This document shows positions 426-31,319 of a stretch of 31,319 nucleotides of DNA, piece by piece (the first letter of the stretch is position 1; every line of letters starts with the position of its first letter). Both the position numbers and the translations under genes were made by a program. Below the pieces are notes generated by a model. The model made no database searches, was not told the DNA's origin, and saw nothing but the letters and a program-made list of their open reading frames with translations. The stretch comes from a virus, in IMG/VR virus record IMGVR_UViG_3300042935_003511, positions 1-31,319 of that record; one strand, written 5' to 3'.

Positions 426-818
426 TCAAGGCGCAGGCGGTGCCACGCTGATCAGGCGCAGGGTTACTTCATAAGGCTCATCCGGGGGCGGATTAACCAG
501 CCGGTGAATCTGCTTAGCCTCCAGCGGCGCACCGTTAGCCCGGTTGAAAATCACCGAGTGCTGGCGGCCATCCGGCAGGGTCAGCGCCATCACCAAGCCG
601 CGCTGATCACGCAACGCCTCGAGCTGGCGAACCACCGACAGCGGCGTCCATACCCCGCCATTGCTGGCCAGAGTGATCGGGCGGCCGTACACCTTGACGC
701 CCTCTTGCACGATCAACTTGCCGTTGAGTGAGCGTTCCTGCTCTTGAGCCACAGCGTCCCACTCGAACTCATCGGTCCATTCAAACTGGTCGTCTAGCTC
801 AATTGCTCCCAGCCACAT
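426..818 (-). CDS. Phage tail-module protein, function unknown (130 aa)
   Basis: A soluble, acidic 130-residue protein starting MWLGAIELDDQFEW. No signal peptide or membrane segment is visible. Its ATG overlaps the tape-measure stop as TGATG (820-816), and an AAGGAG site lies inside the end of the tape-measure gene, so it is translationally coupled to it. Small proteins at this position in siphophages are usually tail-tip or distal tail components. The sequence, with short beta-type segments (KVYGRPITLAS, GLVMALTLPDG) and a loop-rich middle, would fit but does not prove this. Function by position only. Confidence 0.7.
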   Translation of the reverse strand: MWLGAIELDDQFEWTDEFEWDAVAQEQERSLNGKLIVQEGVKVYGRPITLASNGGVWTPLSVVRQLEALRDQRGLVMALTLPDGRQHSVIFNRANGAPLEAKQIHRLVNPPPDEPYEVTLRLISVAPPAP

Positions 819-3800
819 CAGAGACTCCTTAATCCGGCGCTTTCCAGCACGCTGAGCAGGTTGGTTTTATCATCATCACTTTGCACGGCCACATCCACCG
901 CAGGGCCCTTGGCGGGCTGCAGGCGGATGATCTGTGCAGGCGCTTGGTTTGCTGCTGGCTGAGCAGACTTGGCGATGGCATTGGCAGCATCGACACGCTT
1001 TTGCTGTTCATCCTGCTGCCGCTTCTGGCCGGTTTCCGACTCGATCTGCCGTAGCGTGCGCATGGCCTGTTGCAGGTTTGCCACCGAGGTGGCGTCACCG
1101 CCCTTCTGCGCATCGGCAATCTGCCGCTGCAAGTCGGCACGGCGACTGGCGAACTTGCTGCGCTCCAACGCTTCGGTCTCACCACGCAGGCCCATCAGCT
1201 CTTCGCTCAAGCTGGCGAGGGTGGCTTTGCTGCCCTCTTGCAGCTGCTGCATTTTCTGCCGAGCGCCCTCGATTGCACCTTCCAGCGTGCGCAGGTCGGA
1301 GTCATTCAGCAGATTTAACGAGCTGCGTGCCGAGTTAGCACCGCTGACAAAATCCTCAATCCGAATGCTGCCTTTTTCGTAGCCTTCCATAAGCTGTTGT
1401 AGCGCGGCCTTTTGTTGCAGAAACTGCACTTGCAGCCCTTGGCTGCGCACAGCGGTGGTCGTCATCCACGTACCGAAGGCGGACATGCCCACGGTACTGG
1501 CGGCCGACTGCATCTGCCCAAGCGCTTCGGTGGCTTTCTCCAGTGAGGCTGTGGTTTCGTCGAGGCTGCCGGTGTCCAGGCTCATATCGACAGTGGACAT
1601 GCCTTGCAACTTGTCGAAGGCCTCCAGCGCCGCAGCGCTCATGTTTGCCAGCGGCTCACGGGCGCGAGTCAGCACCGCGCCAAAGAAGTCGCCCATGGCG
1701 GACATATCGCTCTTGGCGCTTTCGGCACCCTTGCGCCGCTCTTCCATGGCCTGCCCACTGGCGCGGCGCTCTTCTTCCATGCGCTTGCCGGACTCTTTGC
1801 GCAGCTCAGCGCTGGTCTTGATCGCCTCCCGGTCTGACTTGTTTTTGTCGTCTTGGCTTTTTTTGCCGGTATCGACTGCCGCCTTGAGTTCCTTATGACG
1901 CTCGCCGGATTTTTTCAGTTCCTCGTTGTATTGCGCCGCAGTGATCTTGCCGTCGCCGTACAGTTTGCGCAGGGCCGCCGTGATGTTGTTGAAGTCGACA
2001 TCGGTTTTGGCGTTGCTGATGGCAGTCTGAATTGACTTCAAGTCACCGAGTTTTTCCTCAAGGTCAGAGACCCCGTCGGCAGCACTACCAGCGGAACCGC
2101 CAAGATCTTTCAGCTTAGCGTTGAGCACGTTGGTGGCGTTGGCATAGTCCTCTTGGCTGATGCGGCCGTCTTGGTAAGCCTTGAGCAGCGCTGCCCGTAG
2201 ACCTTCAACTTGCTGCACAGACTTGGTTGAGTCGATCAACTGCATGGCGCTGGCCATGTCAGTGATGGCGGCCTTGCCCGTTGCTGCGGCATCGACCATC
2301 GCTTGTTTGGCGCGCTGGCGGTTGGCGATTTCCTCATCAGTGACAGCCTGATCAACGGCCCGACGCTCAGCAGCAGCATCTTTAACAATGGCGGTCTGCT
2401 GGCCGGTAGCAGCCTCGGTTGAATCGGTCATCTTGCCGTTGGCTGCATCCCAGGCAGCGTTGATGTCCTTGCCGTCCTGCTCAACCTGCGCCACAAGACC
2501 TTCGGTGATCCCAGCCATGACATCGCGAGCTTCCTTCACTGCGGCGCGCAGCTTATCGCCACCCAGCGCATCAGGAAGCTTATCCGCAACTATCGCGATG
2601 GCCCCAAGCACCTCACCAATCTTATTGGTGAACAGCCCTACAAAACCGGAAAGCCCTGCTGTAAGCCCATTGAACAGCGCGCGAAACGGCATCACGAACG
2701 CCGATACGCTGGTCGCCATTTCGTCAATTTTGCTGCCAAAGTTACTCAGCCAAGCGGTGCTGTCGTCCGTTAGCTTGTTGAAGTCGACGCCAACTAAGCG
2801 CTTGGTAAACTCTTCGACCTTGACCGCACCCTGAACAAAGGCATCGCTCAGAGCCTTGGCCAACTTATCCAGCCGGCCATCTTTGTCCATCTGGTCGATG
2901 GTGTCGGCGACGTCTTTGAGCTTGGTCTTAACGGCATCCATCGCGCCGCTTTTGGAGATGCGATCAAGGAAGTCTGACCAGGTATCCTTGAGGTTACTGA
3001 CCAGCCCGGTCAGCGTGCCCATGTTCGCGGCGGCCGCGCCATCGGCGCTTTTGCCCATCTCATCGATGAGCGCCTTGATCACGTCTTTGCCCAGCCGCCC
3101 CTCAGTGGCGAGCTTTTGCAGCTGTACGGTGTTCTTGCCCGTGACCTTCTCCAGCAGCCCCCAAACCGGCACGCCGCGCTCGATGAGCTGCAGAATCTCT
3201 TCGGTCTGTAACTTCTGCTTGGCAAAGGCTTGGCCGAGCGCCGACGACACGCCTTTGAGGCGTTCCATGCCGCCGCCCAGCTGCTCGTTTTTATCGACGA
3301 TGGCCTGCAAGCTGCCGTCCATTGGGTCGAGCCCGTAGGATTTGAGCAGCGCAAAGGCCTCGGTCACGTCCGCCACTTCCAGCGGCGTGGTTTTGGCAAA
3401 CTGTTTGATCCACGCCGTGGCCTGCTCGCCACCGGCAACGCTGCCCATCAGCGAGGCCATGCGCTTGTCGAGCAGCTCGAACTTGTCGCCGGTTTGCAGC
3501 ATCGAGTTGATGCCGTCGCGGACAAGGTTCAGGCCGCTCTGCACCAAGCCAAAGGCGGCATTGAGCGAGATGTAGGCGGCTGCAAACACCAGCACCTGCT
3601 TGGCGCCGGCCGACATGGTTTGGCGGGCGGACTCAAGCCGCGACGTGTGCTCGGCGGCCGTGCGCGCGGCTGCCGCCTGCTCACGCTGCAAGGCTTTAAG
3701 CTGCTCTGTGTTACCAGCCAGCGCGGTCTTGGCCTTGTCGACCTCGGCGGCGAGACGCTTTTCTTCATCGGCTAGGTTGTTGGTATCGATGCCGGCCGCT

Positions 3801-4180
3801 TTGGCGGCCTTTTCCTGCGCGCGCAACTTGTCCTGTAGATCGTCCAGCGCCTTTTGCGCACGCCGCGACTCGCGCTCGGCGTCTTTCAGCGACTGCTGCA
3901 GGCCCGCCGATTCCGGCGCGGCGGTGAGTGCGTCGCGCAACTCCTTGATCTGCAGATCCGTCTGTACCAGCGAGCGCTCAGCCTGAGTGGCGGCGCGCTG
4001 GGCACTTTCCAAACCCTTGACCAGCCCTCGCGCATCCTTGGCCGAGTCGAGCGCAGCGCCCAACGCATCGGCTTCTTGACGCACACCCTCAAGGGCTTCG
4101 GCACTCTTCTTGGCCTCTGGCGACAATTCGTCTTTGCCGCGCAGCACGAACTGGATCAAGCGCTCTTTGATGCCGGCCAT
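818..4180 (-). CDS. Tail tape measure protein (1120 aa)
   Basis: It sets tail length and threads the tail tube; probably ejected during DNA entry. Residues 20-190 are a long Ala/Glu/Lys coiled coil. A hydrophobic segment lies at about 194-218. The tape-measure N-terminal domain spans about 230-410 (contains ERGVPVWGLLEKVTGKN and MGTLTGLVSNLKDTWSDF). Hydrophobic stretches follow at about 490-535, the typical candidate for membrane penetration, and a second coiled coil covers about 770-825 and 980-1095. Three divergent copies of a helical repeat with Y-x-(D/K)-G-x-I occur near 645-693, 715-765 and 918-957. Start chosen at ATG 4180 because GGAGAA precedes it. It is the largest gene of the window, as expected for a siphophage. 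Confidence 0.93.
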   Translation of the reverse strand: MAGIKERLIQFVLRGKDELSPEAKKSAEALEGVRQEADALGAALDSAKDARGLVKGLESAQRAATQAERSLVQTDLQIKELRDALTAAPESAGLQQSLKDAERESRRAQKALDDLQDKLRAQEKAAKAAGIDTNNLADEEKRLAAEVDKAKTALAGNTEQLKALQREQAAAARTAAEHTSRLESARQTMSAGAKQVLVFAAAYISLNAAFGLVQSGLNLVRDGINSMLQTGDKFELLDKRMASLMGSVAGGEQATAWIKQFAKTTPLEVADVTEAFALLKSYGLDPMDGSLQAIVDKNEQLGGGMERLKGVSSALGQAFAKQKLQTEEILQLIERGVPVWGLLEKVTGKNTVQLQKLATEGRLGKDVIKALIDEMGKSADGAAAANMGTLTGLVSNLKDTWSDFLDRISKSGAMDAVKTKLKDVADTIDQMDKDGRLDKLAKALSDAFVQGAVKVEEFTKRLVGVDFNKLTDDSTAWLSNFGSKIDEMATSVSAFVMPFRALFNGLTAGLSGFVGLFTNKIGEVLGAIAIVADKLPDALGGDKLRAAVKEARDVMAGITEGLVAQVEQDGKDINAAWDAANGKMTDSTEAATGQQTAIVKDAAAERRAVDQAVTDEEIANRQRAKQAMVDAAATGKAAITDMASAMQLIDSTKSVQQVEGLRAALLKAYQDGRISQEDYANATNVLNAKLKDLGGSAGSAADGVSDLEEKLGDLKSIQTAISNAKTDVDFNNITAALRKLYGDGKITAAQYNEELKKSGERHKELKAAVDTGKKSQDDKNKSDREAIKTSAELRKESGKRMEEERRASGQAMEERRKGAESAKSDMSAMGDFFGAVLTRAREPLANMSAAALEAFDKLQGMSTVDMSLDTGSLDETTASLEKATEALGQMQSAASTVGMSAFGTWMTTTAVRSQGLQVQFLQQKAALQQLMEGYEKGSIRIEDFVSGANSARSSLNLLNDSDLRTLEGAIEGARQKMQQLQEGSKATLASLSEELMGLRGETEALERSKFASRRADLQRQIADAQKGGDATSVANLQQAMRTLRQIESETGQKRQQDEQQKRVDAANAIAKSAQPAANQAPAQIIRLQPAKGPAVDVAVQSDDDKTNLLSVLESAGLRSL

Positions 4181-4197
4181 TACTTTTCTCCAGGTAT

Positions 4198-4219
4198 AAA
4201 AAAACCCGCCGGAGCGGGT
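4198..4219 (-). terminator. Intrinsic terminator between zinc-ribbon gene and tape measure
   Basis: Stem ACCCGC (4204-4209) and GCGGGT (4214-4219), loop CGGA, followed on the minus strand by seven T. It sits directly downstream of the zinc-ribbon gene, as expected for an independently transcribed moron. Its stem core is nearly the same as that of the hairpin at 386-409. Confidence 0.65.
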
Positions 4220-4242
4220 GTTTTAAAGGTGTTCTTTTTCTT

Positions 4243-4752
4243 TCAGCTGCCTAGCTCACGCTGGGCCCTAGGTGAGCTTTTCGGGATCAGCCCGGGGGTT
4301 TGGCAAACACAGCAGGCCTGCTTAGCTGAGGCCAAACGCCAGATGCTGTAGATCAGACCAGGCACTAAGAAAAACAGCCAAAGCACCAACTCGATCCAGA
4401 TAGAGCCCGGTACATGGCGCTTCCCGTTATTTACCGAGCCGCAGGACGGGCAATAGAGTTTGCCGTATGCGCGGGTAGCGCGGCCTACTTCAACAGCCTG
4501 CCGAGCGCCGTCCAGACCTTGCTTGAGTTGACCAGCAGCCGGAGTGACAAAGTCAACAGCTGAGCGCAGTGTCGAGTCCACCTTTGCGGCGATATCCCCA
4601 AGCGTCAGTGACTGACCAGTGGTCTTGGCGGCTGTCTCTTTGCGCAGCTTCAAAGCCACCGCTTTTTCATAGTAAGCCCCACATTCCGGACATCGCATTG
4701 GTTCACCAAACTCGGTTTGCAGCGCTTCATAGTCACAACTTGGACATTGCAC
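4243..4752 (-). CDS. Double zinc-ribbon membrane protein (169 aa), probable moron
   Basis: Unrecognised protein with a clear layout. An N-terminal zinc ribbon has Cys3-x2-Cys6 and Cys21-x2-Cys24. A helical linker rich in Ala and Val follows (about 30-95). A second cysteine pair is Cys101-x2-Cys104, then a strongly hydrophobic single transmembrane segment at about 117-138, and a last cluster Cys147/148/150. The second ribbon is thus split by the membrane segment, which is unusual. The only in-frame start is GTG at 4752, preceded by GAGGGA. It has no counterpart among standard tail genes, sits where tail chaperones normally are, diverges from the next gene and is followed by its own terminator. 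Location at the inner membrane is inferred. Confidence 0.7.
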   Translation of the reverse strand: MQCPSCDYEALQTEFGEPMRCPECGAYYEKAVALKLRKETAAKTTGQSLTLGDIAAKVDSTLRSAVDFVTPAAGQLKQGLDGARQAVEVGRATRAYGKLYCPSCGSVNNGKRHVPGSIWIELVLWLFFLVPGLIYSIWRLASAKQACCVCQTPGLIPKSSPRAQRELGS

Positions 4753-4901
4753 TGGGCATCCCTCACTTACGAATAAGGCAGGGAATCTACCACCGCCACT
4801 CCGGCTCCGAAACCCGGCAGATACCCAAGGTAGCGCCCAATTGCCGGGGGCCGCTAAGATCGAACACCTAAACCCAGATAAATACCCACCAAGGAACGGC
4901 C

Positions 4902-5519
4902 ATGCCAGATCCGGCAGACATAATCGCCACGCTGCATATTCGCTATCAGCGCGGCCCAGATGAGACGACAGAGCGTGATGTGTCGGTTACGAACTTCGAC
5001 CCGTTCACGATATCCGGTCATTGCCACCTGCGTGATCAATACCGGAGTTTCCGCATTTTCGACATCCGCGAGTGCTACGACTCTGCGACTGGCGAAGTTG
5101 TAGAGAAAGAGAATCTGCCCACATATCTGTATGCGCTATACCAGCAGACAAGCAGATACACGCTTGAGCGCCTGATGACGCCCGAATTCCCAGTTCTGGA
5201 CATACTGGTGTTCATTGCCAAGGCCGATGGCCAAATGAGGGCCGCTGAACGCAAGGTCATGGCCGCAGCCTGCAAGGTGTTCACGCATGACCTGCGAATA
5301 ACGGAGTCACAAGCCAGCGACGCCATCAACCGCACCGCCACACTGAGCCTGCACAGCTTCAAGATCGCAGTCGGCCGCATCAACAAACTGAGCGACGAGT
5401 CGGTGAAGCGCAAACTACTCGCTGCCAGTCGCACCATTATTGGCACGCAGAAGAACGTAACCCCAGGGGAGCAAGAAGCGCTCGACTACATGGCCAAGCG
5501 CTTCGCTAAATCTGAATAG
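4902..5519 (+). CDS. WYL-like/TerB-like two-domain protein (205 aa), right-reading moron
   Basis: It runs against the surrounding late genes. Residues 11-60 resemble a WYL-type sensor fold: a strand with ERDVSVTNFD, then CHLRDQYRSFRIFDI, the usual LR-x4-R-x-FRI pattern. Residues 95-200 resemble TerB-like helical domains, with LVFIAKADGQMRAAERKVM matching the acidic A-x-ADG-x(5)-E signature. WYL domains often bind ligands or nucleic acid in regulators; TerB-like domains occur in tellurite/phage-resistance clusters. What this protein does is not known. ATG 4902 follows AAGGAACGG. It probably has its own promoter in 4753-4901 and could be expressed in the lysogen. The antisense reading frame is judged spurious. 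Confidence 0.75.
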   Translation: MPDPADIIATLHIRYQRGPDETTERDVSVTNFDPFTISGHCHLRDQYRSFRIFDIRECYDSATGEVVEKENLPTYLYALYQQTSRYTLERLMTPEFPVLDILVFIAKADGQMRAAERKVMAAACKVFTHDLRITESQASDAINRTATLSLHSFKIAVGRINKLSDESVKRKLLAASRTIIGTQKNVTPGEQEALDYMAKRFAKSE

Positions 5520-5541
5520 TGGCCATCCTTGGCCAGCAGCA

Positions 5542-6294
5542 TTAAGCCGCTTTGTTAACCATCTTCATTTCGCAGAACTTCGACAAGTCGGAGCTAAGCA
5601 CCAACGGGTCAGCCAGCAACTCGGCACTGGCATCCAGCTTCAAGTATTCCTGCCCGAACACTTTCAGTTCAGAGAGCAAGCCTAGCTTGGCGCGGCGTGG
5701 GCGCAGGCTGAACGGCTCGCCGGACTGGGCATCGTTGAGGCCGGCAATGTAGAACTCCAGCTCCACTTGGCTGCCGTTGAGCAACTGCAAGGCGCTGGCC
5801 GCCAGCTTGGTGTAAGTGGCCTTGATGCCGGCGGCGGTGATGCCGCTGGCGGCAGTCACGAGGATGCCGTGCGGCGACAACAGGTAGTCGGTGCCAGCAA
5901 CCAGGGCCACGTCGCCCGCCGTTTTAATCACCGGCGCAACAGTCAAATCTGGCAAGTTTTTGAAGGGAATCAGCTCGCCCTCAACACCGGCACAGGCCAG
6001 CACTTCGTTTACGATCGCGCCGGCTGCTACGGCCACCACGGTCGAGCGGGTGACGCGCGCCACGTTGGTAGCGGTGAGGTCGTACATGCCAATTTTGGCA
6101 GTTACATCGCTAACCACCTCACGGATATTGCGGTTGCCGCCGCCGCCTCGGTAGTTTTTCAGCTTGCTGACGTCACTGGAAAAGCTGATGTCGAAGCTGT
6201 CGCAGTTGCCGATATCCAGCAGCGGATCATTGGATTGATAGGCGCGGGCGTAGATGATGCCCTCGCCCGCAAAAGAACGGTCAATCTGAGCCAT
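5542..6294 (-). CDS. Major tail tube protein (250 aa)
   Basis: It forms the hexameric rings of the flexible tail tube. The call rests on length, position after the tail terminator and before the tape measure, and a beta-rich sequence with features common in siphophage tube proteins: an N-terminal MAQIDRSFAGEGIIYAR, a glycine loop YRGGGGNRNIREV, and a C-terminal strand-rich part (QVELEFYIAGLNDAQSGEPFSL). An upstream in-frame start at 6333 exists, but the ATG at 6294 is chosen because GAGGAGA stands eight bases before it and the extra residues look random. It is followed by a 22-base convergent gap with the WYL/TerB gene, holding an inverted repeat TGGCCA-N4-TGGCCA. Confidence 0.8.
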   Translation of the reverse strand: MAQIDRSFAGEGIIYARAYQSNDPLLDIGNCDSFDISFSSDVSKLKNYRGGGGNRNIREVVSDVTAKIGMYDLTATNVARVTRSTVVAVAAGAIVNEVLACAGVEGELIPFKNLPDLTVAPVIKTAGDVALVAGTDYLLSPHGILVTAASGITAAGIKATYTKLAASALQLLNGSQVELEFYIAGLNDAQSGEPFSLRPRRAKLGLLSELKVFGQEYLKLDASAELLADPLVLSSDLSKFCEMKMVNKAA

Positions 6295-6399
6295 GTAAGC
6301 TCTCCTCGGATTTGAGTTAATCCGGGGAGGCATGGCGAGCAGTGAGGCCGTTTGGCGTGACTGATCAGCGTGCCCGGTGGGTCGGGATGATGGTGTGGA

Positions 6400-21195: not shown

Positions 21196-21888
21196 ATGGA
21201 CATGTACGAAATTCGACGCCGCAACTTGAACGCAATCCTTGAAGCCAAATTTAATGGCAACAAGGCCGCTTTAGCTTCATCTATTGACAGGCAACCGAGC
21301 TACATCTCCCGCTGCCTGATTACAGGAAACGCCCATCACAAGACTATCGGCGAGAAATTTGCACGTCATGTAGAGCAGTCACTTTCCCTGCCCGCCTGCG
21401 CCTTGGACGCCGAGCCGGGTATCGACTCCCCTTTACACATGTATTTGCTCGGGACACCTCTCGCCACACTTGAAGAAGGCCCTACTTTTTCTCGACCTTT
21501 TCGCCGCACAAAAATAGTAGGAACCGCTCAATTGGGCCCAGAAGGATATTGGGATGCGATCGCCACAACCGATGGCTGGCTAGACGTGCCCAGCAGCGAC
21601 CCGGACGCCTACTCGCTGCGCGTGCGAGGCGACTCGATGGCCCCGGCCATTCGCAGCGGCTGGGTGGTGTGGTGCGAGCCTAACCACGCACTAATCCCCA
21701 GCGAATACGTGATGGTGCGCCGCACTAACGGTGAGTGCATGGTTAAGGAACTGCTCTACGCCAACGCCGATGAAGTCAGCCTCATGGCAGTCAATGACGG
21801 CTACGGCCGCCTAACTATCCCGCGTGAAGACGTCGAGCAAATTCATCATGTGGGCGGCATCGTGCCACCAAGCAAGATCAAGTACTGA
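21196..21888 (+). CDS. CI-like repressor with S24 peptidase domain (230 aa)
   Basis: Maintains lysogeny and is inactivated by self-cleavage after DNA damage. Residues 1-65 form an HTH (NLNAILEAKFNGNKAALASSIDRQPSYIS). The C-terminal S24 domain has Ser147 in RVRGDSMAP and Lys184 in CMVKELL as catalytic pair, about 37 residues apart as expected. The usual Ala-Gly cleavage site is not obvious; a GTAQLGPEGYW segment at 109-119 is in the right area. No good ribosome site is seen before ATG 21196; a second Met is at codon 3. Next gene follows after six bases. Confidence 0.9.
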   Translation: MDMYEIRRRNLNAILEAKFNGNKAALASSIDRQPSYISRCLITGNAHHKTIGEKFARHVEQSLSLPACALDAEPGIDSPLHMYLLGTPLATLEEGPTFSRPFRRTKIVGTAQLGPEGYWDAIATTDGWLDVPSSDPDAYSLRVRGDSMAPAIRSGWVVWCEPNHALIPSEYVMVRRTNGECMVKELLYANADEVSLMAVNDGYGRLTIPREDVEQIHHVGGIVPPSKIKY

Positions 21889-27287: not shown

Positions 27288-27481
27288 GCCTTCCTCGCTG
27301 GGTGCTAATTAAGCGGGCAGCCGAACTGACTGGCTATAGCGAAGAGGCCCTACGGCACAAGACCAAAAACGGCACTTGGCCGCAGGGTCGGATCTGGCGT
27401 AAAGCCAGCGACGGCCGGATATTTATCAACATTGAGGAGGTCGACAAATGGGTCGAGAACGCCCCCCAGCATGCGGCTTAG
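27284..27481 (+). CDS. xis: Excisionase (65 aa)
   Basis: Winged HTH of the phage excisionase type: WVLIKRAAELTGYSEEALRHKTKNGTWPQGRIWRK then the [16 protein letters not shown] wing. It directs the integrase to excision. ATG 27284 overlaps the HD stop and its end overlaps the integrase start by 34 bases; both are normal for xis-int pairs. The longer frame to 27152 is not used. Confidence 0.88.
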   Translation: MSLPRWVLIKRAAELTGYSEEALRHKTKNGTWPQGRIWRKASDGRIFINIEEVDKWVENAPQHAA

Positions 27482-28689
27482 AGGCCGAACTGGAGAAACA
27501 TAAAGGCGTAGAGATCCACGGCAGCAACCTGCGCATTACATTCATGTGGCGCAGGCGCCGATGTCGCGAGTCACTTGGTCTCCCCATCACCAAAGCCAAC
27601 ATCAAGCACGCAGCCCAACTCAGGGCTGCGATTTTGCATGAGATCAAGCTGAGTACATTTGACTATGCCCGCCACTTCCCAGACTCCAAGCACGCTGGCA
27701 ATTACAGCAACACCAAAGACGAACGGTTGCACGCCCTGCTCGAGCGCTACAAACCTCTGAAGGCCGTGGACATCACCGCCGAAACCGAGCGGCGATACGG
27801 CTGGGCGCTCGGCATCTGCGTTGAACTGCTCGGCAAAGATCGGCTGGCCAGCCTGCTGCTACCCGAGGACATCCAGAAACTACGGGTGGAATTGATTGAG
27901 GAGCGCGCGACATCGACCGCCAACCATTACCTCGCCACGCTGGCCGGGTTTCTTGGCTGGTGTGAAAGCAACGGCTACTGCAAAGCAGGGCTAGCCGCCG
28001 CCTGTACACGCTTTGAGATGAGCGATGCAGAACCCGACCCACTGACACAGGCCGACTTCAAGCTACTTATTGAGAAAGGATGCCTGCACCCTATGGACTC
28101 GGCCGCCGTCACGCTAGCCGTATACACAGGGCTGCGCCCCGGTGAGTTGTGCGCGATCGCACGTGAAGACATCGACCTCGAAGCCGGGCTGCTCAGAATC
28201 ACCCGCGCCATTACCGGCAGCAATACATTCAAGCTCCCAAAAACCGGCAAGCCCCGCACCATCATGCTGCTGCCGCCTGCCCTTGAGGCCTGTAAAATCC
28301 TATTGGCCATCTCCGCAGGCATACCTAGCCAAACAATTACCATCTACCTCAACCGGCACCAGACCAAGCAAGAAACGGTCACCCCCCTGCTTTCACCCAG
28401 CATTCAAGCACGCAGAAAGACGGTGAACCCATGGTTTGCGCCAACCGCCTGGAACACCAAGTGGGCAAACATCCAGCGCCGTGCCGAAATCCGCCCACGC
28501 CGCCCGTACCAAACCCGCCACACCTATGCCTGCTGGTGCCTAACGGCCCGTGGTAATCTTGCTTTTATCTCCAAGCAGATGGGACACAAAGACTTCACCA
28601 TGCTGGTCCAGGTGTACGCAAAGTGGATGGACGACGAGTCCCCAGATGAGCTGTTACACATCTGGAACGGCATGCAAAAACTAAAGTGA
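27448..28689 (+). CDS. int: Tyrosine integrase (413 aa)
   Basis: Integrates and excises the phage. An N-terminal arm-binding domain (residues about 20-70, with [24 protein letters not shown]), a central SAM-like helical part (85-185), and the catalytic domain: Arg230 in [12 protein letters not shown], Lys265 in LPKTGKPR, Arg357 in YQTRHTYA with His358, His380 in QMGHKDF and Tyr390 in VYAKWMDD. The first histidine of the usual HxxR is Tyr/Gln here, as in many phage integrases. ATG 27448 follows GAGGAGG. The stop is 50 bases before mutS. Confidence 0.93.
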
Positions 28690-28739
28690 AACGCCCCAAT
28701 ACTGCCCCACAACTTCTAACAAATCGCGCTAAGTACCTG
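28690..28739. other. Candidate attachment site region between int and mutS
   Basis: Fifty bases with no gene. The phage-host junction must lie here or just inside either gene. There is no clear promoter, and no strong ribosome site for mutS (only CTAAGTACCTG before ATG). The core sequence cannot be identified without the other end. Confidence 0.5.
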
Positions 28740-31319
28740 ATGAATATAGCAATTCAAGATTTAAGCTCACACACTCCCATGATGCAACAGTACTGGAAGC
28801 TGAAAAGTCAGCACCCTGAGTTGCTAATGTTTTATCGCATGGGCGACTTCTACGAGATCTTTTACGAAGACGCCAAGCGGGCCGCCAAGTTATTGGACAT
28901 AACCCTGACTTCACGCGGCCAGTCTGCCGGCCAGGCGATTCCGATGTGCGGCATTCCTTATCACGCCGCCGAAGGTTACCTGGCCAAGTTGGTTAAGCTC
29001 GGCGAGTCGGTGGTGATTTGCGAGCAAATCGGCGATCCGGCCACCAGCAAAGGCCCGGTTGAACGGCAAGTGGCGCGCATCGTCACTCCCGGCACCGTCA
29101 GCGATGAAGCGCTGCTCGATGAGCGTCGCGATAACCTGATCGCCGCCGTGCTCGGCGATGAACGTCTGTTTGGCTTAGCGGTGCTGGACATCACCAGCGG
29201 CAACTTCAGCGTGTTGGAAATTCCCGGCTGGGAGAATCTACTCGCCGAACTGGAACGCCTAAACCCGGTGGAACTGTTAATCCCCGATGACTGGCCGCAG
29301 GGTTTGCCGGCGGAAAAGCGTCGCGGTGTACGCCGCCGAGCACCTTGGGATTTTGAACGCGATTCGGCGCTGAAAAACCTCTGCCAACAGTTTGCTACCC
29401 AAGACCTGAAGGGCTTCGGCTGTGAGAACCTGACTTTGGCCATAGGTGCGGCCGGCTGTTTGCTCGGCTACGCCAAAGAAACCCAGCGTACCGCCCTGCC
29501 GCACCTGCGCAAACTGCACCATGAACGTCTCGACGATACGGTGATTCTGGATGGCGCCAGTCGGCGCAACTTGGAGCTCGATACCAACCTCGCGGGCGGG
29601 CGGGAGAACACCCTGCAATCGGTAGTTGATCGCTGCCAAACCAGCATGGGCAGTCGTATGCTGACCCGCTGGCTAAATCGACCGCTACGCGACTTGCAAA
29701 TATTGCAAGCGCGGCAAGAGTCGATCGCCTGCCTGCTCGAAGCCTATCGCTTTGAAACGCTGCAGCCACAGCTAAAAGAGATTGGCGATCTGGAGCGGAT
29801 TCTGGCCCGGATCGGTTTGCGCAATGCCCGCCCGCGCGACCTCGCCCGCCTGCGTGATGCGCTGGCAGCCTTGCCATTATTACAGCAAGCGCTGAGCAGC
29901 TTAGACACGCCGCATTTGCAGGCATTGGCACGCACCATCAGCACTTACCCGGAGCTGGCCTCACTCTTGGCCAGCGCCATCAATGACAATCCCCCGGCGA
30001 TTATTCGCGACGGTGGCGTGCTACGAACCGGCTACGACGCCGAACTCGACGAGTATCAAGCGCTGAGTGAAAACGCCGGGCAATTTTTGATCGACCTTGA
30101 GGCGCGCGAGAAAGCCCGTACCGGGCTCGCTAACTTAAAAGTCGGCTACAACCGGGTGCACGGCTATTTTATCGAGTTGCCCAGCAAACAGGCCGAGTCG
30201 GCACCGGCCGACTATATCCGCCGGCAAACCCTGAAAGGCGCCGAGCGCTTTATCACCCCCGAATTAAAAGCCTTTGAAGATAAAGCCCTGTCGGCCAAGA
30301 GCCGCGCATTAGCGCGGGAGAAACAACTGTATGACGAATTACTGGAATTACTGATTGGCCATCTCGGCAGCCTGCAAGACAGCGCCGCCGCCTTGGCTGA
30401 GTTGGATGTCCTGAGCAATTTGGCCGAGCGCGCCCTGACGCTGGACCTTAACCGCCCACGCTTTGTCGATGAACCCTGCATGCGCATTCAGCAAGGCCGC
30501 CATCCAGTGGTTGAGCAAGTGCTGAGCACACCCTTTGTGGCCAACGATTTGGCTCTCGATGACGCCACCCGCATGCTGATCATTACTGGGCCGAACATGG
30601 GCGGTAAATCCACCTATATGCGCCAAACCGCTTTGATCGTGTTGTTGGCACATATCGGCAGCTTCGTCCCGGCCGCCAGTTGCGAGCTGTCGCTGGTCGA
30701 CCGTATCTTCACCCGTATTGGCTCCAGCGATGACCTCGCCGGCGGGCGCTCGACCTTTATGGTCGAGATGAGCGAAACCGCCAACATTCTGCACAACGCC
30801 AGCGAGCGCAGCCTGGTGTTGATGGACGAAGTGGGGCGTGGCACGAGCACCTTCGACGGCCTGTCGCTGGCCTGGGCGGCCGCCGAGCAATTGGCTAAGT
30901 TGCGTGCCTACACGTTGTTCGCCACCCACTACTTCGAGCTGACGGTACTGCCGGAAAGCGAGCCGCTGGTGGCCAACGTGCACTTAAACGCCACCGAACA
31001 TAACGAGCGGATTATCTTCCTTCACCATGTGCTGCCCGGGCCTGCTAGCCAGAGCTACGGCTTAGCGGTGGCGCAGCTGGCAGGAGTGCCGGGGCCGGTG
31101 ATTCTGCGCGCCCGCGAGCATTTGGCACGCTTGGAAACCAGCAGCCTGCCCCATGAGATGGCGCAGCAGCACAAAGACACGCCGGCCAAGCCACAACAAA
31201 GTGATCTTTTTTCCAGCCTGCCGCATCCGATTCTGGAGGAGTTATCTAAGCTCAACCCGGATGATATGAGCCCACGCCGCGCGCTGGACTTGTTATACGC
31301 ATGGAAGACACGGATCTAA
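28740..31319 (+). CDS. mutS: DNA mismatch repair protein MutS (859 aa)
   Basis: Recognises mismatches and recruits MutL. Full length, ending in TAA at the last base. From ATG 28740: mismatch-contact Phe37-x-Glu39 in MGDFYEIF, ATPase Walker [11 protein letters not shown] with Lys623, Walker B-type [19 protein letters not shown], and FATHYFEL. Length is near that of P. aeruginosa MutS (855). The sequence is very close to Pseudomonas MutS throughout. An in-frame GTG at 28686 would add 18 residues (unrelated to other MutS) and overlaps the integrase stop as GTGA; the ATG is chosen by homology. The N-terminal [10 protein letters not shown] differs from most Pseudomonas but the HTPMMQQY follows normally. 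Confidence 0.97.

What the first reader, a model, noticed from the sequence alone, without database searches (positions are those of the whole stretch)
4198..5541. Divergent zinc-ribbon membrane protein and WYL/TerB-like protein in place of tail-assembly chaperones
Between tail tube (ends 5542) and tape measure (starts 4180) one expects two overlapping G/GT-type chaperone genes with a frameshift. None is there. Instead, a minus-strand zinc-ribbon protein with one membrane segment and a plus-strand WYL-like plus TerB-like protein diverge from a 149-base gap, with a terminator behind the first. WYL and TerB domains recur in phage-defence and stress loci, so the pair could be a lysogen-expressed system, for example excluding other phages. 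The two may work together: a membrane part and a sensor part. The function is inference.
Basis: partly seen in the sequence, partly recalled or inferred. Interest (0 to 1): 0.75.

Follow-up and report, generated by a model that had tools for sequence, protein, structure and literature searches.

The report
Insulated accessory-gene slot in Pseudomonas prophages
Two extra genes sit in a swap-in slot between two tail genes of a dormant Pseudomonas virus; the slot looks built for genes switched on while the virus is dormant, probably to keep rival viruses out, but the two genes travel independently rather than as one machine.

Summary
Between the tail tube (5542-6333) and the tape measure (818-4180) lie a zinc-ribbon membrane protein (4243-4752, -) and a WYL+TerB-like protein (4902-5519, +), diverging from a 149-bp gap. 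They do not stand "in place of" chaperones. Cargo-free relatives run tube to tape measure in about 70 bp with no chaperone, and phages that do have a chaperone carry the same WYL-TerB gene between tube and chaperone. The site is a moron slot bounded by two backbone elements: a repeat behind the tube and a terminator before the tape measure that is also present without cargo. Late-strand cargoes are unrelated to each other (zinc-ribbon, DUF4124, DUF6694 lipoprotein, DUF2939, T4-Imm-type superinfection immunity), yet 27 of 28 share an extended -10-like promoter (0.3 expected; 1 of 269 structural genes). The window's copy is at 4784-4792. Elsewhere WYL-TerB follows phage repressors or arc/ant genes. 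This supports lysogen expression. A fixed "membrane part + sensor part" pair is not supported: each gene occurs without the other, at chance co-occurrence. Best reading: two independent, purifying-selected morons, the first probably an inner-membrane exclusion protein and the second a nucleic-acid-sensing protein. Function is inferred.

The parts
4243..4752 (-). Zinc-ribbon membrane protein gene (169 aa, GTG start), late-strand moron
   Evidence: ORF; closest full-length relative L064/L065 (about 57-64%) alone in the same slot without WYL-TerB
4663..4752 (-). N-terminal zinc ribbon MQCPSC...RCPECGAYYEK, the part shared by the zinc-ribbon morons with different C-termini
4288..4461 (-). C-terminal module: two CxxC knuckles (C101/C104, C147/C150) around one hydrophobic stretch; model suggests a re-entrant helix pair, low confidence (mean pLDDT 60)
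   Evidence: invariant cysteines in A3; AF2
4759..4765 (-). Ribosome-binding site (GTGAGGGA) of the zinc-ribbon gene
   Evidence: sequence
4784..4792 (-). Extended -10-like element TGGTAGATT, 40 nt upstream of the zinc-ribbon start; only exact copy in the window
   Evidence: 27/28 cargo genes, 0.3/28 in shuffles, 1/269 structural late genes; held-out 5/5
4753..4901 (.). 149-bp divergent intergenic region; block CCAATTGC..G..GC.GCTAAGATC conserved with L006 upstream of WYL-TerB
4902..5519 (+). WYL + TerB-like protein gene (205 aa), no HTH, no membrane segment
4926..5081 (+). WYL-like beta barrel (residues 9-60), motif GHCHLR..RSFRI
   Evidence: AF2; Foldseek: CapW, PafBC, BrxR, DriD
5106..5507 (+). 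TerB-like helical bundle (residues 69-202), IAKADGQMRAAER motif
   Evidence: Pfam TerB E 2e-4, 2h5n fold match
4197..4219 (-). Intrinsic terminator ACCCGCTCCGGCGGGT plus T-run just before the tape measure; backbone element, present in cargo-free relatives
5520..5535 (.). Inverted repeat TGGCCATCCTTGGCCA behind the tail tube; backbone element marking the other edge of the slot
5542..6333 (-). Major tail tube protein (phrog_807)
818..4180 (-). Tape measure protein (TMP_3)

Best explanation
[quoted passage not shown] Shown by sequence: the slot has constant edges; its late-strand cargo is swapped between phages but keeps a common promoter-like element; its opposite-strand cargo ends about 25 nt behind the tube; both window genes are under purifying selection. 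Inferred: the zinc-ribbon protein is transcribed from its own promoter in the lysogen, stopped before the tape measure by the backbone terminator, sits in the inner membrane by its C-terminal hydrophobic zinc module, and interferes with DNA entry of superinfecting siphophages, probably in step with the neighbouring tape measure with which it is inherited. Inferred: the WYL-TerB protein is a separate lysogen-expressed protein whose WYL barrel binds a nucleic acid or nucleotide (as in CapW, DriD and PafBC) and whose TerB bundle passes the signal on, in immunity or prophage control.
For: Slot: cargo-free Haddon, LPPA36 and L080 with about 70 bp between tube and tape measure; different cargo in Turba (ricin-type lectin) and OQ658367 (DUF6694 lipoprotein). 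Edges. Promoter element: 27/28 vs 0.3 in shuffles and 1/269 structural genes; held-out 5/5; single exact copy in the window. Cargo families fit exclusion: Imm_superinfect + SHOCT in L093 (E 3e-18), lipoproteins, secreted DUF4124, membrane DUF2939 and bPH. [quoted passage not shown] the TP-J34 exclusion lipoprotein acts through the tape measure (PMC10883804). WYL-TerB: same position in phages with unrelated or distant tails (L013-L018, L028, L033), behind repressors in L055-L057; folds like defence/DNA-damage WYL regulators.
Against: No expression or phage-challenge data. No exclusion family covers the window's own zinc-ribbon protein, and its model is poor (pLDDT 60). The promoter motif was defined after looking at the sequences, and upstream regions may share descent; no -35 is recognisable. 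In the WYL barrel the third residue of the CapW Arg/Phe/Arg patch is Asp54 in the window's clade, so ligand binding may differ. Some slot cargo (ricin-type lectin, DUF4124) could serve host traits rather than exclusion.
Confidence: 0.5

Rival explanations
1. One reading: the zinc-ribbon membrane protein and the WYL-TerB sensor are two parts of one anti-phage system.
For: They are neighbours here and in L006, L015, L018, L028; zinc-ribbon morons are in about 11 of 20 WYL-TerB slots. In L055 a zinc-ribbon membrane protein lies directly downstream of WYL-TerB in the same direction.
Against: Each occurs alone in the same slot, co-occurring at chance level (1 of 32 slots, 1.1 expected); L064 has the closest relative of this zinc-ribbon protein without any WYL-TerB. 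Partners share only about 40 residues.
Confidence: 0.12
2. WYL-TerB is a regulator of prophage induction or repressor stability, sensing single-stranded DNA or nucleotides made during DNA damage, not a defence effector.
For: Adjacent to CI/S24-type repressors (L056), HTH regulators (L055, L057), Arc-type repressors and Ant antirepressors (L007-L009, L013-L017, L021, L033). WYL barrels of CapW, DriD and PafBC serve damage or immunity sensing (PMC9122588). Some members are fused to a HIRAN domain (E 4e-11).
Against: It has no DNA-binding domain of its own. In the window, L006, L015, L018, L019 and L028 no repressor or antirepressor is next to it; BstA shows that repressor-linked genes can be defence genes (PMC8585504).
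Confidence: 0.25
3. Lysogenic-conversion cargo for the host (envelope stress, surface properties) with no role against phages.
For: Slot cargo includes DUF4124, DUF6694 and ricin-type lectin proteins without known anti-phage role; chromosomal WYL-TerB relatives exist that look to lie outside prophages (L099, L100, L102).
Against: An Imm_superinfect protein uses the same slot and the same promoter element; the slot lies next to the tape measure, the target of known exclusion proteins.
Confidence: 0.2
4. A Tab/anti-Tab-like pair: the opposite-strand gene blocks tail assembly of invaders from its own promoter and the late-strand gene is the late counter-defence.
For: Same geometry as JBD26 tab (opposite strand, own promoter) and anti-tab (late strand); Tab targets the tape measure (PMC10884400).
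Against: The late-strand gene has its own promoter element and no tight association with WYL-TerB. Sequence relation to Tab was not tested directly; Tab is described as 83 residues without known domains.
Confidence: 0.04
5. The genes replace the G/GT tail-assembly chaperones in virion assembly.
For: Position between tube and tape measure only.
Against: Cargo-free relatives have neither; WYL-TerB is on the opposite strand; in L015, L016, L028, L033 and L053 a chaperone-like gene (phrog_1442/phrog_7608) coexists with it.
Confidence: 0.01

Closest known systems
HK97 gp15-type superinfection-exclusion morons next to the tape measure
   Same: Moron beside the tail genes of a siphophage; predicted inner-membrane protein; inherited with tube and tape-measure genes.
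   Different: Sequence relation to gp15 not tested directly; no family match links them; exclusion not shown here.
T4 Imm-type superinfection immunity proteins (Pfam Imm_superinfect)
   Same: A member with SHOCT occupies this very slot with the same promoter-like element in L093.
   Different: The window's zinc-ribbon protein does not match Imm_superinfect; it has two pairs of CxxC motifs and only a weak, sub-cut-off similarity to Pmp3.
CapW/BrxR/DriD/PafBC WYL-domain regulators
   Same: WYL Sm-like barrel with the conserved R-x-F stretch; closest PDB folds.
   Different: No HTH and no WCX domain; a TerB-like bundle instead; third Arg of the putative ligand patch is Asp54 in the window's clade.
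BstA prophage defence
   Same: Some WYL-TerB genes lie directly downstream of the prophage repressor, as bstA does.
   Different: Different protein; no aba-like self-immunity element was looked for; the window copy is not at the repressor.
Tab/anti-Tab of JBD26
   Same: Opposite-strand moron with its own promoter inside the late operon of a Pseudomonas phage.
   Different: Different insertion point (between terminase genes), different proteins, no obligate partner here.
P22 immI-like arc/ant modules
   Same: Arc-like and Ant (Bro-N) genes share the slot with WYL-TerB in L007-L009, L013-L017, L021, L033.
   Different: Absent from the window's slot.

Membership tests
Phage moron (accessory gene with own expression signals in a late operon) | Absent from otherwise syntenic relatives | tested here: met
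   Haddon, LPPA36, L080: tube to tape measure in about 70 bp
Phage moron (accessory gene with own expression signals in a late operon) | Own promoter | tested here: inconclusive
   Zinc-ribbon gene: extended -10-like element as in 27/28 cargo genes, sequence evidence only and no -35. For WYL-TerB only a conserved upstream block with L006
Phage moron (accessory gene with own expression signals in a late operon) | Own terminator | tested here: inconclusive
   A terminator follows the zinc-ribbon gene but is a backbone element also present without cargo
Phage moron (accessory gene with own expression signals in a late operon) | Transcribed in the lysogen | not testable with these tools
   needs RNA-seq
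Tail-assembly chaperones G/GT | Two overlapping frames with programmed frameshift between tube and tape measure | tested here: not met
WYL-domain protein | WYL Sm-like barrel with conserved R-x-F motif | tested here: met
   model, folds; L031 passes the Pfam cut-off, the window copy alone does not
CapW/BrxR-type WYL transcription factor | N-terminal HTH and C-terminal WCX domain | tested here: not met
   barrel starts at residue 9 and is followed by helices
TerB family | TerB helical domain above curated score | tested here: inconclusive
   22.0 bits against 24.4; 2h5n fold match
Superinfection-exclusion protein (HK97 gp15, Imm, SieA type) | Inner-membrane protein that blocks superinfecting phage DNA entry | not testable with these tools
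   Hydrophobic stretch present; activity untested; no match to Imm_superinfect for the window protein
Known anti-phage defence system | Match to a catalogued defence model | tested here: not met
   PADLOC: only weak matches, WYL E about 1e-3

The most novel reading that the evidence does not exclude
The slot is a polymorphic prophage-exclusion locus: a constant N-terminal zinc ribbon docks interchangeable membrane modules, all expressed in lysogens from one shared promoter type and in some members shielded from late read-through by a hairpin over the ribosome-binding site, with WYL-TerB (in some phages fused to HIRAN or other N-terminal domains) as a second, DNA-end-sensing line of immunity.
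Probability: 0.2. Interest if true: 0.72.

Novelty: new variant of a known kind. Interest (0 to 1): 0.52.

Why it matters
It turns an isolated oddity into a defined moron slot with readable edges and a promoter signature, so the lysogenic accessory genes of a large group of Pseudomonas prophages can be listed from sequence. Several cargo families (zinc-ribbon, DUF4124, DUF6694, WYL-TerB) have no known function, and a known superinfection-immunity family sits among them, which gives a direct hypothesis to test for all.

Tried and rejected
Chaperone replacement: rejected by cargo-free relatives and by phages with chaperones beside the cargo. Functional pair: not supported by co-occurrence. Terminator as part of the moron: rejected, it is backbone. 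Read-through insulation by an RBS hairpin: clear in L081, L033, L090 and L001, but not significant for the window (p 0.44) and only a modest excess over the set (mean best stem score 6.8 vs 5.5), so not claimed for the window. Consensus sigma-70 scan found no promoter. Named phages: only a weak WYL match in Acetobacter phiAP1, none for the zinc-ribbon protein; plasmids none for WYL-TerB. AlphaFold of the zinc-ribbon protein too poor for a fold search. In a genus sample reached through a Pseudomonas locus, only 6 of 399 genomes have a full-length WYL-TerB match; most other hits cover only the WYL part and look like ordinary WYL regulators.

Full report
WHAT IS THERE. The window is a lambda-like temperate siphophage of Pseudomonas (the closest named relatives are P. 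aeruginosa phages): S24-type repressor at 21196-21888, tyrosine integrase at 27448-28689, and a head-tail operon on the minus strand. Between the tail tube (5542-6333, phrog_807) and the tape measure (818-4180, TMP_3) lie a 169-aa zinc-ribbon membrane protein (4243-4752, -) and a 205-aa WYL+TerB-like protein (4902-5519, +), diverging from 149 bp.

NOT A CHAPERONE REPLACEMENT. In the closest P. aeruginosa phages (Haddon, LPPA36) and in L080 the tube is followed by the tape measure after about 70 bp, with no chaperone. In other phages that carry WYL-TerB behind an unrelated or distant tail tube (L015, L016, L028, L033, L053), a chaperone-type gene (phrog_1442, or phrog_7608 which weakly overlaps it) is present between the cargo and the tape measure. 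The cargo site is therefore "behind the tube", whatever the tail type.

THE SLOT. Its edges are a TGGCCA-A-GGATGGCCA-type repeat directly behind the tube stop (window 5520-5535) and the terminator ACCCGC..GCGGGTTTTTTT before the tape measure (window 4197-4219). Cargo in the late direction includes zinc-ribbon proteins with a conserved first 30-40 residues and quite different C-termini (DUF2939, bPH, coiled-coil, lone membrane segments), DUF4124 secreted proteins, DUF6694 lipoproteins, a ricin-type lectin (Turba) and an Imm_superinfect+SHOCT protein (L093, E 3e-18). Cargo in the opposite direction includes WYL-TerB, an XRE-type regulator (L071), an unassigned 218-aa protein (L069, L070) and a membrane protein (L068); in L066, L068-L071, L074, L078 and L085-L087 these genes end about 24-26 nt behind the tube.

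A SHARED PROMOTER-LIKE ELEMENT. Upstream regions of 28 late-direction cargo genes contain [TG]GNTANA[TG]T at -31 to -44 in 27 cases, against 0.3 in dinucleotide shuffles and 1 of 269 upstream regions of structural late genes from the same loci. The motif was chosen after inspection, so five DUF4124/DUF6694 cargoes not used to define it were checked: 5/5 have it (L001, L071, L072, L095, L096), while the ricin-lectin gene and a few other extra genes in the slot (L072, L095) lack it. The window has one exact copy of the commonest form, TGGTAGATT at 4784-4792, and it lies in front of the zinc-ribbon gene. In some members the pyrimidine stretch after it pairs with the GGGAGGGA ribosome-binding site, a possible block on translation of late read-through RNA; this is strong in L081, L033, L090 and L001, but not significant in the window.

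THE WYL-TerB FAMILY. Scans found 16-24 viral contigs and 14 genome contigs, mostly Pseudomonas prophages with the gene antisense right behind the tube, plus Burkholderiales, Chlorobiaceae and other forms with an N-terminal membrane segment. Several forms follow a repressor-like gene directly: L056 behind an S24 repressor, L055 and L057 behind HTH regulators. Others share the slot with Arc-like and Ant genes. Some are fused to HIRAN (E 4e-11), others have long N-terminal extensions that look BRCT-like to the eye but gave no Pfam match. The AlphaFold model (pLDDT 90) shows a five-strand barrel and a helical bundle; the best PDB folds are CapW, PafBC, BrxR and DriD for the barrel and 2h5n for the bundle. 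WYL domains fused to TerB and to BRCT have been noted before as probable ligand sensors in defence (Makarova 2014, PMC4012209). Of the putative ligand residues Arg/Phe/Arg in CapW (PMC9122588), the window keeps R48 and F50, but the third is Asp54 in its clade.

ARE THEY A PAIR? No firm support. In 32 readable slots anchored on the tube, WYL-TerB is in 5, the zinc-ribbon family in 7, both in 1 (1.1 expected). The closest relative of the window's zinc-ribbon protein (L064) is alone in its slot. WYL-TerB relatives at 75% identity (L007-L009) have Ant and Arc genes instead.

FUNCTION. Shown: slot, edges, shared promoter-like element, independent assortment, purifying selection. Inferred: lysogen expression; inner-membrane exclusion by the zinc-ribbon protein; nucleic-acid sensing by WYL-TerB. 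The exclusion idea rests on a known immunity family using the same slot and promoter, on the kind of proteins found there, and on precedents in which exclusion proteins act through the tape measure (HK97 gp15, TP-J34; PMC10883804; SNIPE, PMC13190303). Regulation of induction by WYL-TerB is the main rival for that gene.

NOVELTY. Morons beside the tape measure and WYL domains in defence are known. The searches of named phages, plasmids and the open-access papers held here gave no description of this slot, its promoter signature or the phage WYL-TerB family. I rate it a new variant of a known kind.

Noticed in passing
window 28686-31319: The right end of the window is a mutS gene (MutS domains I-V), probably the host's; its likely start (28740) is about 50 bp behind the integrase stop (28689). 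The prophage would then sit just upstream of mutS, the mutS-cinA hot spot known in P. fluorescens (PMC2647930), with integrase reading towards mutS.
   Followed up: partly
L081:6780-6830, L033, L090, L001: Perfect or near-perfect hairpins pairing the ribosome-binding site of the slot gene with the stretch just after the -10-like element; would mask translation in read-through but not in locally started RNA.
   Followed up: partly
L099, L100, L102: Chromosomal WYL-TerB relatives, about 29% identical to the window copy; an ArsC-like gene and what look like dapD/dapC-type genes flank them by eye, apparently outside any prophage.
   Followed up: partly
L013-L017:5356-6615: WYL-TerB fused to an N-terminal membrane segment and a HIRAN domain (tested on L016).
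   Followed up: partly
L020:3708-5048 and L036:4708-6048: A transposase gene (ISL3-like by eye) has landed in the same slot.
   Followed up: no
L080, L003, L004: A strong terminator between tube and tape measure is present even with no cargo, so it may tune tape-measure expression in the late operon.
   Followed up: no
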